Source of the DNA: Clostridia bacterium
Lineage (GTDB): Bacteria > Bacillota > Clostridia > Oscillospirales > Acutalibacteraceae
Reading direction: 5' to 3'
Assembly (NCBI GenBank): GCA_017416345.1
Contig: JAFQCR010000011.1
Span: forward strand, 41,110 to 105,109
Length of the DNA stretch: 64,000 nt
Shown here: in pieces, positions 23,545 to 64,000 of the stretch
Numbering within the stretch: the first letter of the stretch is position 1
How the letters are laid out: every line of letters begins with the position of its first letter
Notes under the pieces: generated by a model
Seen by the model: the letters and a program-made list of their open reading frames with translations, nothing else
Told to the model about the DNA's origin: nothing
Database searches by the model: none
Program-made: the position numbers and the translations under genes

Positions 23545-23820
23545 TGTGACTTTCGCCTCCTTGTTAAATTTGGCGGGCAACGCCGCTTTTGTCTGCAATG
23601 TTTACATTGTGCCGGGTGTTTCATCCCTGTCCAATATAAAATCCGGATCGCAGCATCATTTTTGCAAGCAATCCGGGGCCGACATTCGGCGTTCTTGCTT
23701 TGGCTTGCCAAAGCAACGCAAATTCTTGTCGCCCGGTTTAAAATCGGACATACTCCGCGGAAATTCCCCAACTCGAGGTTGGCCACCTCCCGCATCAACG
23801 CATATCTGCACATCACATGC
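23545..23820 (-). promoter_or_regulatory. Structured 5' leader of the S10 superoperon
   Basis: About 275 bases lie between the predicted transcription start and rpsJ. On the minus strand they contain a near-perfect hairpin of TTGCTTTGGC and GCCAAAGCAA (23716-23695). A second hairpin (23676-23643) pairs CCGGATTGC with GCGATCCGG and is directly followed by ATTTTATATT, the form of an attenuator. Upstream GC-rich segments (GGGAGGTGGCC, CCGCGGA, AACCGGG) can pair further. Length, position and an internal terminator-like element match the leaders through which L4 controls S10 operons in other bacteria; that function here is inferred. Confidence 0.6.
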
Positions 23821-58430: not shown

Positions 58431-61175
58431 ATGAGTGATTTCGGTGCTTTTTTACATTATAAACCGCAGGATACGAACCCCAAGAACTCGTCGAGGGTGT
58501 ATTTTGCCTGCCATCCGAACGATTTTTCACAATACTTTAACGAAACCTATGAGGATATTCTGGCTGCGGGTAACAGATCGGGCGTAACACTTACATTCTG
58601 GTACCGTGACCCCGAGCTTGAAGTATCCGAATCCAACCGTGAGGCTTTGCTTACACAGTTGGACGGTATGCAGCTGCTGGTGACCCCCGTTACCGAATCT
58701 CTGCTTTCCGACACCGATGCTGTAATGTCGTTGGAAATAGCATATGCAAAGGAACGCAACATCCCCATTCTTCCCCTTCTTTCGGATCAGCAGCTCATTG
58801 AGGAGTACAGCCAACCCGAAAACTTCGGCGATACTCAGTTTTTGAGTAAAAGCATAGCAGATGCCGATGCCCTGCCCTTCAACAAAAAGCTTGCTGACTT
58901 TTTGTCCTCGGTGTTGGTTGGCGATGAATTGAGAAAAAAGGTGCAGGCCGCCTTTGATGCATATATATTCTTAAGCTACCGCAAAAAGGACCGTGCCGCC
59001 GCACAGGAGCTGATGAGGCTTATTCACAAAAACGACTTCTGCCGTGATATTGCGATATGGTACGATGAATTTCTTGTGCCGGGTGAAAACTTCACCGAGG
59101 CAATAAAAAGCGCTTTGAAAAAAAGCGAGCTTTTTGCGCTGGTGGTCACCCCCAACATAACCGAGCCCGAAAACTATGTTTTAAAGCACGAATACCCCAT
59201 GGCCGTTGAAGCCAACAAAAGAATACTTCCGTTGGAGACCGTAAAAACCGACCGAGAGGCTTTAAAAGCAGGCTTCAAAGATCTGCCCGAGGTGACCGAT
59301 GCCCACGATCCTGCCGTTTTATCGGAGGCTCTGCTTGAAAATCTTCGTGAGCTTGCTATCCGTGAGAACGACACCCCCGAGCACAACTATCTGATAGCGC
59401 TTGCTTACCTGCACGGCATCGACGTCGAGGTTGACCATCAAAAGGCCGAGGAGCTGATGCTCTCTTCTGCCGAAAGCGGCCTGCCCGAGGCCATGACCAC
59501 CCTTTACAGTATGTATAAAAACGGAAAGGGCGTTGCGCGCGATTACGCCAAAAGCCTTAGTTGGCTGGAAAAGGCCTGCGACGTGTATATCCAAAGAACA
59601 ATGGCAGACCCCAAAACTCACCGTGATGCACTTATAGACACCCTGACCAAGCTTGCGGAAAGTTATCTTAATTTTGGGTACCACAAGAAATGCGAACGCT
59701 ACGCACGTGAAGCCATAATGCACTGTAAATTCGCCTTTAAGGACAATAGCGACCCCAAATATGCTTTGGAAGCACTTAAAAACGCTTTTGAAAGGATATC
59801 GGCTCAAATTGCCATGAGGGCGAAGGAAAACAACGGTTTTTCCATTGAGGATAGCTCAAGGTACTCTCTTGAGCTGTATCTTGAGCTTGAAAAGCTTTAT
59901 GATGAATTCGGCGTGCCGCAAGGCCAATCTGAAACGCTCGACACACTCATAGGCTCGGCATACTCGCAGATAAGTGTTTACTATTCCGCATTGAAAGAAC
60001 GTGAAAAAGCCGAATCCTATCGCCAAAAGGCCGAAACTTATATTGACATTCCTTCAGTGGTCAGCGACATAACTACCCAGATGTTTGATATGCTATCGTC
60101 AAACTCGCTTGATTACAATAAATACTTCGAGCTTGTTGACCGAATGATTGCGTATTATAAATCGGAGGTTGACAAACTTGCGACAGCGCAAAAACAAAGC
60201 TACATTGAGGAAATGATTTTGGTTGGTTCTTCTATAATTGTAACGACCGAATCGTTGGCCAAGCAAATATACGATACAAAGGTTGACGATCTGCCACAGT
60301 TGCTTGAAAAGGTTCACTCCATCATGGGAAAATGGAACAGCATTATCGGGCAATACGACACCGATATGGCCGGCAATGTGCCTTTGGACAGTCTTGCTTC
60401 GGTCTATGACTCTATGTGCAACATTGCACATCTTTGTAATAACGATGCCGATGTCGAGCACTTCAACGCCCTGCATTATAAGCTGGCCAAGCAGAGCTTT
60501 GATCTGTATCCAACCGAAAAGTCATTGGAAAAAATGGCCGTGGCGGCCAACACCTTCTGCTCCTTCAAATTACCGTCAGAGAGTACGCTTAACATCCTTC
60601 ACGAGGTGGAAAACGCCTTCTCGCTTGTTTACCGCGACGGTGAGCCACCTGCCGAAAGAACGACGTATATCAGCGCAATATATGAACTGACGATGCTGAC
60701 CTGCGAGGCTTTGGGCGATTTTGAAAACGCCTACATATACGCTGAAAAGCTGTACGGCATCGCACGCAAAAAGTTCCGTCATACCGGTAAATTTTCCGAT
60801 GAACTCTTTATGATCTCGTGTCATCTCAGCGTGTTTGAGTACAAGATCAAATCCGAAGACGATTACTACTCCCTTGTAAATTCATTCAAAAGCATCATTT
60901 CCCGTTGTGCCGAATTTATTAACCAACCGCAGAAATTCGGAATTTCGCAAAAGGATTATACCGAAGTATGCGTCAACTACTGCAACGCAATGTTTATGCA
61001 GGCTATAGCGTATTCCGACGGCGGCAATGACGAGCAGGCCGAAAGCAATCTCAATGAATGCTATAACGTTGCCAAACAGATACTTCCCCATTGCACCGAA
61101 ACTCAGCAGGCCGGATTGCAGGAAAAAATGGCACTTATCGAAAACTATTTCAACGGTGATGACGAAGAGGAATAA
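58431..61175 (+). CDS. Tandem TIR-domain protein with Sel1/TPR repeats
   Basis: 914 residues. Two TIR-like domains: about residues 20-160 (VYFACHPNDF ... MSLEIAYAKERNIPILPL) and about 176-290 (DAYIFLSYRKKDRAAAQELM, IWYDEFLVPGENFTEAIKSA, VLKHEYPMAVEANKRILPLE). Each keeps a Glu (E102, E254) where TIR NADases such as SARM1 have the catalytic one. Residues 325-400 contain Sel1-like repeats (NYLIALAYLHGIDVEVDHQK, YKNGKGVARDYAKSLSWLEK); the rest is helical and TPR-like. No signal peptide or membrane helix. TIR proteins of bacteria often degrade NAD or make cyclic-ADP-ribose signals in phage defence, but here no partner defence gene lies nearby, so the role is unknown. GGAGAG lies 5 bases before the ATG; own promoter. 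Confidence 0.82.
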   Translation: MSDFGAFLHYKPQDTNPKNSSRVYFACHPNDFSQYFNETYEDILAAGNRSGVTLTFWYRDPELEVSESNREALLTQLDGMQLLVTPVTESLLSDTDAVMSLEIAYAKERNIPILPLLSDQQLIEEYSQPENFGDTQFLSKSIADADALPFNKKLADFLSSVLVGDELRKKVQAAFDAYIFLSYRKKDRAAAQELMRLIHKNDFCRDIAIWYDEFLVPGENFTEAIKSALKKSELFALVVTPNITEPENYVLKHEYPMAVEANKRILPLETVKTDREALKAGFKDLPEVTDAHDPAVLSEALLENLRELAIRENDTPEHNYLIALAYLHGIDVEVDHQKAEELMLSSAESGLPEAMTTLYSMYKNGKGVARDYAKSLSWLEKACDVYIQRTMADPKTHRDALIDTLTKLAESYLNFGYHKKCERYAREAIMHCKFAFKDNSDPKYALEALKNAFERISAQIAMRAKENNGFSIEDSSRYSLELYLELEKLYDEFGVPQGQSETLDTLIGSAYSQISVYYSALKEREKAESYRQKAETYIDIPSVVSDITTQMFDMLSSNSLDYNKYFELVDRMIAYYKSEVDKLATAQKQSYIEEMILVGSSIIVTTESLAKQIYDTKVDDLPQLLEKVHSIMGKWNSIIGQYDTDMAGNVPLDSLASVYDSMCNIAHLCNNDADVEHFNALHYKLAKQSFDLYPTEKSLEKMAVAANTFCSFKLPSESTLNILHEVENAFSLVYRDGEPPAERTTYISAIYELTMLTCEALGDFENAYIYAEKLYGIARKKFRHTGKFSDELFMISCHLSVFEYKIKSEDDYYSLVNSFKSIISRCAEFINQPQKFGISQKDYTEVCVNYCNAMFMQAIAYSDGGNDEQAESNLNECYNVAKQILPHCTETQQAGLQEKMALIENYFNGDDEEE

Positions 61176-61233: not shown

Positions 61234-61881
61234 ATGAACGACAGTATCAGAAAAACTATGGAAAATCTCAACAAAAACCGTATGGAGAGCTTCTTTGTTG
61301 AGACTAAAGAGGAAGCGCTCAAGACGGCTTTGTCGCTTATTTCCGACGGTGACACCGTGTCGGTCGGCGGCTCGGTGACCCTAAATGAGGTCGGAATTCT
61401 TGAGGCGCTCAAATGCGGCAAGTACAACTATCTTGACCGCTATGCCGCAAGCAGCCCCCAAGAAATGCATGATATTTTCCGTCAGAGCTTTTCGGCCGAT
61501 GCTTATTTCACATCGTCCAACGCCGTGACTGAAGAGGGCGAGCTTTTCAACTGCGACGGCAACGCCAACCGTGTTGCAGCTATGATGTACGGCCCCAAAA
61601 AGGTCATCGTTATCGTGGGCAAAAACAAGATAGTCAAGGACCTTGACGAGGCGCTCATCCGCCTTAAAACGGTGGCCGCACCGCTCAACGCAAAACGCCT
61701 TAATAAAGAGACCTACTGCGCAAAAATAGGTCATTGCGTGACAATGGACAACGGCAAGGAGCGGGATATGACCTGCGGTTGCCGCTCAAAAGACCGCATC
61801 TGCCGCAACTACACCGTTATGGGCGAACACCTCCCCGACCGTGTAAAGGTCATCATCGTAAACGAGGATCTGGGATATTAA
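61234..61881 (+). CDS. LUD-domain protein (LutC/YkgG-like)
   Basis: 215 residues of the LUD family (formerly DUF162). Conserved parts: VSVGGSVTLNEVGILEALKC, the SSNAVTEEGELFNCDGNANR segment and the cysteine cluster TYCAKIGHC ... CGCRSKDRICRNY. LutC-like members take part in lactate oxidation with iron-sulphur proteins, but LutA and LutB partners are absent here, and stand-alone LUD proteins are of unknown function. ATG 61234 has AAAGGA 8 bases upstream; an ATG 9 bases earlier lies too close. It follows the tandem-TIR gene by 58 bases on the same strand and may share its transcript. Confidence 0.85.
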   Translation: MNDSIRKTMENLNKNRMESFFVETKEEALKTALSLISDGDTVSVGGSVTLNEVGILEALKCGKYNYLDRYAASSPQEMHDIFRQSFSADAYFTSSNAVTEEGELFNCDGNANRVAAMMYGPKKVIVIVGKNKIVKDLDEALIRLKTVAAPLNAKRLNKETYCAKIGHCVTMDNGKERDMTCGCRSKDRICRNYTVMGEHLPDRVKVIIVNEDLGY

Positions 61882-61911
61882 CCTGCCGTCTCGGTTGAAT
61901 TGAACCTTAAC

Positions 61912-61940
61912 TTGACAAAACGCACGGTTCACGGTATAAT
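61912..61940 (+). promoter_or_regulatory. Promoter of the first paralogous secreted-protein gene
   Basis: TTGACA (61912-61917), 17 bases, TATAAT (61935-61940): consensus promoter. Transcription near 61947 produces a leader of about 113 bases that contains the duplicated structured element. Confidence 0.8.
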
Positions 61941-61942
61941 GA

Positions 61943-62045
61943 TTATAGAAGCAATTGACCGGCCGCCGAGAGGTGTGCAGCCGAAAACTTAAAATGTTTT
62001 TGAGAATAGCACACCGGCGAAACAGTTAGTGTGCTATTATGTTTT
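61943..62045 (+). ncRNA. Duplicated structured 5' leader RNA, copy 1 (candidate cis-regulatory element)
   Basis: An invariant 40-base core (61955-61994) begins TTGACCGGCC. CGGC near 61959-61962 can pair with GCCG at 61980-61983, enclosing CGCC-GAGA-GGTG, a hairpin with a GNRA tetraloop. GTGTGC in the core (61973-61978) is complementary to GCACAC (62009-62014), which itself forms a 9-bp stem ATAGCACAC/GTGTGCTAT (62006-62014 with 62029-62037) ending 8 bases before the AAGGAG site. The two pairings exclude each other, the logic of a riboswitch. A second copy precedes the paralogous gene. I do not recognise it as a known class. Confidence 0.65.
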
Positions 62046-62059
62046 AAGGAGATGTCGTT

Positions 62060-63133
62060 GTGAAAAAGAAAATTATCACTATTGTTGTTTCCGTTTGTGT
62101 TGTTGCGGCTGCCGCAATAACAAGTGTCGTTATTTTCAACCGACCCGACAACGACGGCGGCAACTCCGGAACAACAGCTTCTGATCTGCTTGCAAGCTGG
62201 AACAGCATAACTGACGGTCCGCAGGCAGACGACATCACCGATGTTGAAAACATCAGTTATACCAATAATTCCGCCAACTCGACTATCTCGAATTTTGGCA
62301 ATGTTGCTATGTGCGGTAATTATATATACATTGCTAACGATAAAGCGTTAATTGAGTACGATATAAATACAAATGTTGCAATAGAACTTGATGTAGTTCC
62401 AACGGCAGTAATGGGATTGGCCGCAAGTGAGGACTATCTCTATTTTAAATCTCAGCCTTTCCGTGGTGTACAGCGAATCGCTAAAGAAGGAGACACCATC
62501 GAAAATGTTTTTTACAGCAACAATTGCAGTGACCGTATGTACATCGATGGCAACAACGTTTTTTATGTCAGTAGCATGATAGAAAATAAAGCAAAACGTT
62601 TATATCACTATGATGTATCGCAAGGAAAAGAAACACAGTTGTTGGATCTTGTAAACTCTTATTTTGTCGACGAGAATTATATTTATGCAATATGTCTGGA
62701 ATGCGAAGGCTCAGATAATACAATTTTGATGAGAGCCAACCGCCAAACGATGGAATTTGAGCAGATACAACTATCTTTTTCTCCCAATACAGTCTTTGCT
62801 TCCGATGATGAACTTTACATAATGGGAGCATTATCAAACGATATAGATGCAAAAATCATAAAAGTATCAAATGGCGCAGAAACAACTTTGCCTATCTCGA
62901 GCAACTCTTATCAGGTGTATGGAAATAAGCTTGTTTATCAGACTCGTTTTGGTAACAGCTTAGAGGTTTACGATCTTATGACCGGCAAGATCACAACCAT
63001 ATATAAAGGAAATGCAAAAGGTCTTTATGTTCTAAAAGGACGGTATGTGTGCTATTCAACCTATGGCCAAATGTGGTATAAGTTGTATGATCTTGAGACC
63101 GGAGAGACTAAGTTGATCTACGGTGAAGAGTAG
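62060..63133 (+). CDS. Membrane-anchored extracellular protein, paralogue 1 (DUF5050/beta-propeller-like)
   Basis: 357 residues, GTG start at 62060 with AAGGAG 8 bases upstream. The N-terminus KKKIITIVVSVCVVAAAAIT is a signal anchor or uncleaved signal peptide; no lipobox Cys. A short linker (about residues 28-70) is followed by repeated beta-strand blades of the form GNYIYIANDKALIEYDINTN, EDYLYFKSQP and DGNNVFYVSS, which look like a six- or seven-bladed propeller of the DUF5050 type. Function unknown; probably binds a ligand outside the cell. The region is more A/T-rich than its neighbours. A paralogue with near-identical leader and N-terminus follows. Confidence 0.75.
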   Translation: MKKKIITIVVSVCVVAAAAITSVVIFNRPDNDGGNSGTTASDLLASWNSITDGPQADDITDVENISYTNNSANSTISNFGNVAMCGNYIYIANDKALIEYDINTNVAIELDVVPTAVMGLAASEDYLYFKSQPFRGVQRIAKEGDTIENVFYSNNCSDRMYIDGNNVFYVSSMIENKAKRLYHYDVSQGKETQLLDLVNSYFVDENYIYAICLECEGSDNTILMRANRQTMEFEQIQLSFSPNTVFASDDELYIMGALSNDIDAKIIKVSNGAETTLPISSNSYQVYGNKLVYQTRFGNSLEVYDLMTGKITTIYKGNAKGLYVLKGRYVCYSTYGQMWYKLYDLETGETKLIYGEE

Positions 63134-63178
63134 TTTTCACAGACTTGCTTACAGCAATGGCAATAATAATATCTTACA

Positions 63179-63207
63179 TTGACAATATTGGCAAAATAAT
63201 GTATACT
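63179..63207 (+). promoter_or_regulatory. Promoter of the second paralogous secreted-protein gene
   Basis: TTGACA (63179-63184), 17 bases, TATACT (63202-63207). The promoter spacer sequence differs from that of the first copy although the transcribed leader is conserved, so selection seems to act on the RNA. Confidence 0.78.
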
Positions 63208-63209
63208 GT

Positions 63210-63311
63210 TTATAGAAGCTGTTGACCGGCCGCCGAGAGGTGTGCAGCCGAAAACTTAAAACGTTCTAAGCATAGCACACTGACTAAAGGGTTGGTGTGC
63301 TATTGTGTTTT
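63210..63311 (+). ncRNA. Duplicated structured 5' leader RNA, copy 2 (candidate cis-regulatory element)
   Basis: The core at 63222-63261 is identical to copy 1 over 40 bases. The spacer and hairpin loop differ in sequence (loop TGACTAAAGGGTTG against CGGCGAAACAGTTA in copy 1), but both arms of the ATAGCACAC/GTGTGCTAT stem (63272-63280 with 63295-63303) and the competing GTGTGC in the core are kept. The variable loop with invariant arms supports a selected RNA structure rather than simple recent duplication. Confidence 0.65.
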
Positions 63312-63325
63312 AAGGAGATGTCGTT

Positions 63326-64000
63326 GTGAAAAAGAAAATCATCGCCATTGTTGTTTCCGTTTGCGTTGTTGCAGTTGTCGCAGTAACAAGCGCTATCATT
63401 TTTAACCGACCCGACAATGATGACGGCACTTCCGGGACAACAGTTTCCGATCTGCTTGCAAGCTGGAACAGCATAACTGACGGTCCGCAGGCTGATGACG
63501 TCACCGATGTTGAAAATATTGAAAATGTTAAAAATTCGGCAAATACAATAATGGAACTCGGTAAAGTGACTATTCAAGGAGATTATATTTATTTTTCAAA
63601 TGATAAGCAGGTTGTTGAATATGATATAAACACCGGAGTCGCCATCGAAGTTGATACATCCGGCAAAATAATGTTCAGTATGGCTGCAAGCGATGATTAC
63701 ATATATTTCCGATTGTCCCGAGGAGGCGTAGTTCAACGTATTTCAAAGGATGACGGAAATGTTGAGACGGTTTTCACATCAAATGCAGTTGGTAATATAT
63801 ATATCGATGGCAACCATGCGTTTTACGCGACCTATGATAACGGCTTGCAAAGAGTCGGGTTATACCACCGTGATATTATCTCTGATACAGAAACGTTGCT
63901 TGTGGAAGGGTCTGTAAAAACATTTTTTATTGACGAGAGTAACATTTATGTTATTTTGCAGCACGATGAATCGGGCACTGACAGTTTCACTCTTATGAAA
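63326..64000 (+). CDS. Membrane-anchored extracellular protein, paralogue 2 (partial, runs off the window)
   Basis: The first 225 codons of a second gene, GTG start at 63326 with AAGGAG 8 bases upstream, open to the window end. The first 65 residues are almost the same as in paralogue 1 (signal anchor KKKIIAIVVSVCVVAVVAVT; linker SDLLASWNSITDGPQADD). The following propeller-like part keeps the blade pattern (GDYIYFSNDKQVVEYDINTG, DDYIYFRLSR, DGNHAFYATY, DESNIYVILQ) but has diverged strongly. It probably performs a related but distinct binding role. Confidence 0.78.
   Translation, partial: MKKKIIAIVVSVCVVAVVAVTSAIIFNRPDNDDGTSGTTVSDLLASWNSITDGPQADDVTDVENIENVKNSANTIMELGKVTIQGDYIYFSNDKQVVEYDINTGVAIEVDTSGKIMFSMAASDDYIYFRLSRGGVVQRISKDDGNVETVFTSNAVGNIYIDGNHAFYATYDNGLQRVGLYHRDIISDTETLLVEGSVKTFFIDESNIYVILQHDESGTDSFTLMK

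What the first reader, a model, noticed from the sequence alone, without database searches (positions are those of the whole stretch)
61943..63311. Two copies of an unrecognised structured leader RNA with switch-like geometry
Seen directly: a 40-base invariant core (61955-61994 and 63222-63261) with a GAGA-capped hairpin, then a GCACAC element that can pair either with GTGTGC in the core or with GTGTGC just before the ribosome site. Loop and spacer sequences differ between copies while all three complementary segments are kept. The element is transcribed (each copy sits behind its own consensus promoter) and ends 8 bases from the start-site AAGGAG. It matches no riboswitch class I can recall (checked by memory against c-di-GMP, ZTP, fluoride, glycine, guanidine, preQ1, purine and cobalamin). 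It may be a new riboswitch-like or protein-binding leader controlling secreted proteins.
Basis: partly seen in the sequence, partly recalled or inferred. Interest (0 to 1): 0.78.

Follow-up and report, generated by a model that had tools for sequence, protein, structure and literature searches.

The report
Duplicated mRNA leader with alternative folds
Two neighbouring, duplicated bacterial genes begin with the same folded RNA leader, which can pair in two mutually exclusive ways next to the ribosome-binding site; it may be a small local control element, but nothing shows a widespread new switch.

Summary
Two leaders (61948-62059, 63215-63325) follow good promoter-like sites, share a 40-base identical core and keep GTGTGC / GCACAC / GTGTGC. 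I add CTTAAAA:TTTTAAG, which overlaps AAGGAG. Both fold better than 200 shuffles. In RNA lacking the last arm, GCACAC is predicted to pair upstream with GUGUGC; 0.4% and 2.1% of shuffles do as well. In full-length RNA the long hairpin wins, narrowly in copy 1 and by far in copy 2.

The family claim is not borne out: Rfam gives nothing up to E=10, and a covariance model finds no convincing further copy in the own genome or in 394 order, 398 family and 391 class genomes (overlapping draws). The genes are tandem paralogs whose first 58 codons are as alike as the leaders and hold a longer identical run, so duplication explains much of the invariance. Whether changes avoid paired bases depends on the pairs chosen: p 2.5e-4 for my core set, 0.003 for the consensus fold, none for each copy's own fold. 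Local translational tuning and a passive duplicated leader are about equally likely; ligand switching is unsupported.

The parts
61912..61940 (+). promoter-like site of copy 1 (TTGACA-17-TATAAT, 12/12)
61948..62059 (+). leader copy 1, from the inferred transcription start to the base before GTG
   Evidence: start inferred from the -10
61960..61983 (+). P1 hairpin, GAGA loop, with a TGCA bulge; holds GTGTGC at 61973-61978
61988..61994 (+). CTTAAAA, pairs with TTTTAAG at 62042-62048 (outer part of P2)
62006..62037 (+). P2 hairpin, ATAGCACAC...GTGTGCTAT (GCACAC 62009-62014, GTGTGC 62029-62034)
62042..62051 (+). TTTTAAGGAG: partner of CTTAAAA overlapping the ribosome-binding site AAGGAG (62046-62051)
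62060..63133 (+). gene 1, 357 aa, N-terminal hydrophobic segment, predicted beta-rich domain
63179..63207 (+). promoter-like site of copy 2 (TTGACA-17-TATACT, 11/12)
63215..63325 (+). leader copy 2
63227..63250 (+). P1 hairpin of copy 2; GTGTGC at 63240-63245
63255..63261 (+). CTTAAAA of copy 2
63272..63303 (+). P2 hairpin of copy 2 (GCACAC 63275-63280, GTGTGC 63295-63300)
63308..63317 (+). TTTTAAGGAG of copy 2, ribosome-binding site 63312-63317
63326..64000 (+). gene 2, paralog of gene 1, cut by the contig end; DUF5050 match

Best explanation
A lineage-restricted, structured 5' leader that was duplicated together with its gene and tunes translation. Seen in the sequence and by folding: a 5' hairpin P1, then a long hairpin P2 whose outer helix CUUAAAA:UUUUAAG overlaps the first bases of AAGGAG. 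Predicted: while the RNA is being made, GUGUGC of P1 captures GCACAC before its final partner exists, which leaves the downstream region open; when the last GUGUGC arm is made the RNA refolds, P1 re-forms and P2 partly covers the ribosome-binding site. Inferred: this limits translation of the finished mRNA to early rounds or to a trigger that opens P2. Whether a trigger exists is unknown, and nothing points to a metabolite.
For: 0 of 200 shuffles fold as well, each copy. In the RNA lacking the last arm, the middle pair of the alternative helix has P 0.992 and 0.991; the mean probability that GCACAC is paired with anything upstream is 0.998 and 0.993, reached in 0.4% and 2.1% of 1000 shuffles; upstream:arm duplex energy equalled in 0 and 0.9% of 2000 shuffles. 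0 of 12 changes fall in the 48 columns that I took as core pairs, p 2.5e-4, and 2 of 12 in the 58 columns of the consensus fold, p 0.003. Changes at 41/87 (U-G to C-G) and 63/72 (G-U to A-U) keep the pair, and at 61/74 (C.A to U-G) add one. Copy 2: cost of opening the ribosome site 6.5 kcal/mol, reached in 2% of 300 shuffles.
Against: Only two related copies from one array, no two-sided change, no convincing further copy. The avoidance of paired columns disappears when each copy's own fold is used: 5 of 12 changes in 62 paired columns for copy 1 (p 0.13) and 8 of 12 in 64 for copy 2 (p 0.73); pairs 43/85 and 51/84 of copy 1 are not kept in copy 2. The core set and the consensus favour pairs shared by both copies, so they lean towards this result. 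In copy 1 the outer helix is predicted 34% formed at 37 C and opening the ribosome site costs 1.5 kcal/mol, which 52% of shuffles reach. The balance of the two folds differs greatly: 1.1-2.1 against 7.5-9.6 kcal/mol. In the 121-base version of copy 2 the minimum fold loses P1's lower stem. In the minimum folds only AAG of AAGGAG is in P2.
Confidence: 0.36

Rival explanations
1. By-product of gene duplication: the leader is a constitutive 5' UTR whose hairpins at most protect the mRNA or set a fixed expression level; no switching.
For: Leader identity (98 of 111 columns, 88%) is like that of the first 58 codons (150 of 174, 86%), and a 44-base identical run lies in the coding part. No convincing other copies. 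Changes do not avoid the pairs of each copy's own fold. P1 starts about 12 bases from the inferred 5' end, where hairpins are known to protect mRNAs (recalled).
Against: Changes avoid the pairs of the consensus fold (p 0.003) and of my core set (p 2.5e-4); the alternative pairing exceeds shuffles.
Confidence: 0.36
2. Ligand- or protein-binding leader (riboswitch-like), with P1 as the sensor, stabilising P1 and so the closed form.
For: P1 is identical in both copies and its 3' strand takes part in the alternative helix.
Against: P1 is a 24-base hairpin with 8 pairs, small for an aptamer; no convincing homologs, whereas riboswitch classes are normally spread over many genomes (recalled); no Rfam match to E=10; the genes suggest no ligand.
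Confidence: 0.12
3. Transcription attenuator: P2 as a terminator, GUGUGC(P1):GCACAC as antiterminator.
For: The scan lists copy 2 P2 as terminator-like; the geometry would fit.
Against: Copy 1 P2 is not listed, and the scan finds 2 sites in all against 1.7 expected; the T run is short and interrupted (TATGTTTT, TGTGTTTT).
Confidence: 0.08
4. DNA operator: inverted half-sites AGCACAC / GTGTGCT (plus GTGTGC in P1) bind a local regulator just downstream of the promoter.
For: The palindrome with 14-base spacer is kept in both copies; the exact half-sites with a 10-20 base spacer occur nowhere else in the genome held.
Against: Does not explain the conserved CTTAAAA/TTTTAAG pair, nor the spacer changes that keep or add RNA pairs.
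Confidence: 0.08

Closest known systems
Metastable, Shine-Dalgarno-covering hairpins in the aapA3 toxin mRNA of Helicobacter pylori (PMC6733600; abstract and section list seen)
   Same: Hairpins in and near a 5' UTR proposed to form in order during transcription, covering the Shine-Dalgarno sequence.
   Different: There the transient hairpins are the closed form, in a toxin mRNA with an antisense RNA; here the predicted transient form is the open one and the final form is partly closed. I made no sequence comparison.
Translational riboswitch expression platforms (for example the preQ1 classes; review PMC11625349, only the search listing with the start of its abstract seen)
   Same: A competing strand decides whether the ribosome site is paired (recalled).
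   Different: No aptamer or ligand known, no Rfam match, no phylogenetic spread found.
Rare candidate motifs of intergenic-region surveys (PMC11109978, passages seen), such as the yjbM motif with three representatives
   Same: Small structured motif near the Shine-Dalgarno with very few representatives; the authors call classifications of rare motifs highly speculative.
   Different: Here both representatives come from one tandem duplication, so comparative support is weaker still.

Membership tests
Any Rfam 15 family | match to a covariance model at the curated score | tested here: not met
   whole window: only S10-Clostridia at 23726-23806; 61850-63400, none up to E=10
Riboswitch class | aptamer conserved across genomes with covariation | tested here: not met
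   no convincing further copy; no two-sided change. The model rests on two sequences and strict filters were used, so distant copies could be missed.
Riboswitch class | ligand-dependent change in fold or expression | not testable with these tools
   needs probing or reporters
Riboswitch class (works like) | two mutually exclusive pairings, one covering the ribosome site | tested here: inconclusive
   alternative helix exceeds shuffles; balance in full-length RNA near in copy 1, far in copy 2
RNA thermometer | ribosome site closed at low and open at high temperature | tested here: inconclusive
   predicted mean unpaired rises only from 0.42 to 0.59 (copy 1) and 0.23 to 0.38 (copy 2) from 20 to 50 C; opening cost falls from 2.1 to 1.2 and from 8.2 to 3.7 kcal/mol; no sharp opening, prediction only
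Intrinsic terminator / attenuator | GC-rich stem followed at once by a T run | tested here: inconclusive
   copy 2 listed, copy 1 not; no excess over shuffles
DUF5050 (PF16472) for the encoded proteins | score over the curated cut-off | tested here: inconclusive
   gene 2 33.0 bits (cut-off 27); gene 1 has no DUF5050 match at E<=0.001, only Kelch_6 at 19.9 bits, below its cut-off of 25.3

The most novel reading that the evidence does not exclude
A switch used by a tandem gene family to choose between paralogs: the same sensor hairpin in every leader, but loop changes that set different balances (copy 1 near-balanced, copy 2 strongly closed), so that one signal or the speed of transcription sets the order in which the paralogs are translated.
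Probability: 0.1. Interest if true: 0.6.

Novelty: new member of a known kind. Interest (0 to 1): 0.28.

Why it matters
If the folds act as predicted, this is a compact natural case in which duplicated genes keep one leader architecture while loop mutations retune it, testable with a few reporter constructs. If not, it shows how a recent tandem duplication can mimic a conserved regulatory RNA when only one genome is read.

Tried and rejected
Rfam at gathering threshold on the window and at E up to 10 on 61850-63400: nothing for the leader. BLASTN of the leader in 148 genomes drawn as relatives, E<=0.01: besides the two own copies two short matches (G108, G063), where I saw neither P1 nor P2 by eye. 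Covariance model R1 in the own genome, E<=10: two further weak matches, 21.2 and 18.6 bits; the first, read, begins by eye at the end of an open frame and looks like a terminator; the second was not read.

In 394 order genomes 13 besides the own had a match at E<=0.1, where the per-genome E-value alone would allow about 39 (strict filters lose some). I gave 11 of those 13 loci (not L028 and L033, partial matches) and the two own-genome loci, which listed 15 matches and printed 10, from 9 loci. These keep a hairpin like P2; one (L022) also has a stem at P1, but none shows P1 with GUGUGC. One (L026, genome G022, found) ends in AGGAGG before a 327-aa ORF, so it may be a leader of another kind. 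In 398 family genomes the strangers at E<=0.01 were G169 and G022; in 391 class genomes G799 at E<=0.001. The G169 (30.8 bits) and G799 (32.1 bits) matches overlap the end of an ORF and run past its stop, and look like terminators. The flanks of the other loci were not read.

Exact 18-base core in genome contigs: 4 places, in a Pseudomonas, a Rhodospirillales MAG, a Porphyromonas and a Streptomyces record; the model finds at most the P1 part there (3 of 4, E<=1). 20-base core in viral contigs: none. Protein relatives: none confirmed in genome contigs or viral contigs, none in plasmids or phages, no PDB sequence or NCBIfam match up to E=1. In 200 family genomes: the own genome and one weak match (G022, 30% over residues 2-78, E 4.8e-4), which by eye is the signal-like start of another long ORF. 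A leader peptide was considered by eye and set aside: I saw no ribosome site at a usable distance, and a one-base deletion changes the frame between the copies. A thermometer has only weak support.

On checking I found that the p value of 2.5e-4 depends on my choice of core pairs; one search gives the other choices. I therefore lowered the best explanation from a drafted 0.42 to 0.36 and the interest from 0.30 to 0.28, and raised the passive-duplication rival from 0.30 to 0.36.

Full report
What is there. Two leaders, 61948-62059 and 63215-63325, precede two tandem genes (62060-63133; 63326 to the end of the window). Each follows a promoter-like site with the same 17-base spacing, 12 of 12 and 11 of 12 consensus matches. 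The -35 boxes are identical, the 17-base promoter spacer differs at 12 of 17 positions, the -10 to the inferred start at 2 of 13, the leader at 13 of 111 columns (plus one gap), the first 58 codons at 24 of 174, and codons 59-200 at 183 of 419. So the leader belongs to a block, from the -10 box to about codon 58, that is much more alike than the rest. That is what a duplication followed by gene conversion, or a conserved 5' cassette, would give. In codons 1-60 dS is 0.44 (NG86), though only 4 of 26 fourfold sites differ. The block has identical runs of 40, 34 and 44 bases, the longest inside the coding sequence; runs of 40 and 44 have p about 0.02 and 0.013 under even spread. The invariant core is therefore not by itself evidence of function.

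The fold. The 100- and 97-base leaders fold alike: P1 (CGGCCGCC GAGA GGTG TGCA GCCG, 8 pairs) and a long P2, z -4.20 and -4.19, 0 of 200 shuffles each. Longer versions give -3.82 and -2.88, and in the 121-base version of copy 2 the minimum fold loses P1's lower stem. The consensus fold has 29 pairs, none with a two-sided change.

Do changes respect the fold? There are 12 (11 substitutions, one deletion) in 102 aligned columns. None falls in the 48 columns of P1, the 7-pair outer helix and the 9-pair P2 arms (p 2.5e-4); within columns 41-85 none falls in the 18 arm columns (p 6e-4). With all 58 paired columns of the consensus fold, 2 of 12 (p 0.003). With the columns paired in both minimum folds, 4 of 12 in 59 (p 0.065). 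With copy 1's own fold, 5 of 12 in 62 (p 0.13); with copy 2's, 8 of 12 in 64 (p 0.73); with columns paired in either, 9 of 12 in 67 (p 0.85). The first choices favour pairs that both copies share, so they lean towards the result; all assume even rates. Changes at 41/87 and 63/72 keep the pair and at 61/74 add one, but 43/85 and 51/84 of copy 1 are lost in copy 2. Selection on the helices is thus suggested, not established.

The alternative pairing. GUGUGC of P1 can take GCACAC. In the RNA that ends just before the last arm (81 and 80 bases), the middle pair of that helix has probability 0.992 and 0.991 and P1's lower stem 0.0 and 0.008. The mean probability that GCACAC is paired with anything upstream is 0.998 and 0.993; 0.4% and 2.1% of 1000 shuffles of the upstream part reach these values, and 3.1% and 5.0% reach 0.9. 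Duplex energy: 0 and 0.9% of 2000 shuffles. The two copies are not independent. In the longer RNA with the gene start, the alternative lies 2.1 kcal/mol (copy 1) and 7.5 (copy 2) above the minimum; without the gene start 1.1 and 9.6. Copy 1 might populate both forms (about 4% alternative at 37 C); copy 2 at equilibrium would not.

Against a firm switch. In copy 1, with the full 5' end, the outer helix is formed only 34% at 37 C and opening the ribosome site costs 1.5 kcal/mol, which 52% of 300 shuffles reach. In copy 2 it is 97% and 6.5 kcal/mol, reached in 2%. There is no sharp opening between 20 and 50 C.

Spread. Rfam: none up to E=10. A covariance model of the two copies (R1; 126 and 123.5 bits for themselves) finds no convincing third copy in the own genome, in 394 genomes of the order, 398 of the family or 391 of the class. 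These draws overlap, include the own genome, and use stricter filters that lose weak matches. Of the best strangers, G799 (32.1 bits) and G169 (30.8) look like terminators in their flanks; the third (G109, 29.8) was judged from its alignment alone. The exact 18-base core occurs in four genome contigs records of distant bacteria, where the model finds no more than the P1 part. The model rests on two sequences, so distant relatives could be missed, and other strains of this species were not searchable.

The genes. Gene 1 (357 aa) and gene 2 (224 aa to the contig end) share an N-terminal hydrophobic segment; 55 of the first 65 residues are identical. Gene 2 matches DUF5050 (33.0 bits, cut-off 27) and gene 1 does not. 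The AlphaFold2 model of gene 1 (mean pLDDT 68.1, two sequences; residues 1-79 below 50) is all beta-strands after residue 79; that this is a beta-propeller is inference, and I did no fold search. A third paralog's last 49 residues (69% identical) end at the tip of contig C5, followed by an ABC transporter ATPase gene and two ORFs without a Pfam match. The window ends at the end of contig C9, so the array probably continues into the unassembled gap; this is inference.

Conclusion. A real, structured, duplicated leader with statistical signs of a transient alternative pairing, but found only in one tandem array and with only choice-dependent signs of selection on its helices. Local translational tuning (0.36) and a passive leader carried by duplication (0.36) are about equal. 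One paper describes comparable sequential hairpins in another setting (PMC6733600, abstract and section list), and a survey treats motifs with so few representatives as highly speculative (PMC11109978, passages). Paper searches made: DUF5050 (3 papers, none opened), candidate structured RNAs and metastable cotranscriptional folds, of which only listings were seen apart from the two papers named. I did not see this leader described in them, but no search was made for the leader's own sequence in print.

Noticed in passing
23726-23806 (-): S10-Clostridia ribosomal protein leader, the only Rfam match in the window at gathering threshold (48.7 bits).
   Followed up: no
58431-61175: 914-aa protein with a TIR domain and a Sel1 repeat match; weak matches to the PADLOC models ThsB and SAVED_TIR over the TIR part only. 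Possibly a defence or signalling protein.
   Followed up: partly
window end 64000 = end of contig C9; L035 6200-6388: The tandem array appears to break the assembly: gene 2 runs off C9, and the C-terminus of a paralog lies at the end of contig C5 before an ABC transporter ATPase gene. More copies may lie in the gap.
   Followed up: partly
62183-62226: 44-base run inside the coding region identical in both genes, synonymous positions included, pointing to gene conversion or a conserved 5' cassette.
   Followed up: partly
L027, L029, L031 (position 1501-1592): Three genomes share a nearly identical hairpin element (AAAAGCAGACUGA...UCAGUCUGCUUUU), possibly a mobile or repeated element; no P1 of the leader.
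   Followed up: no
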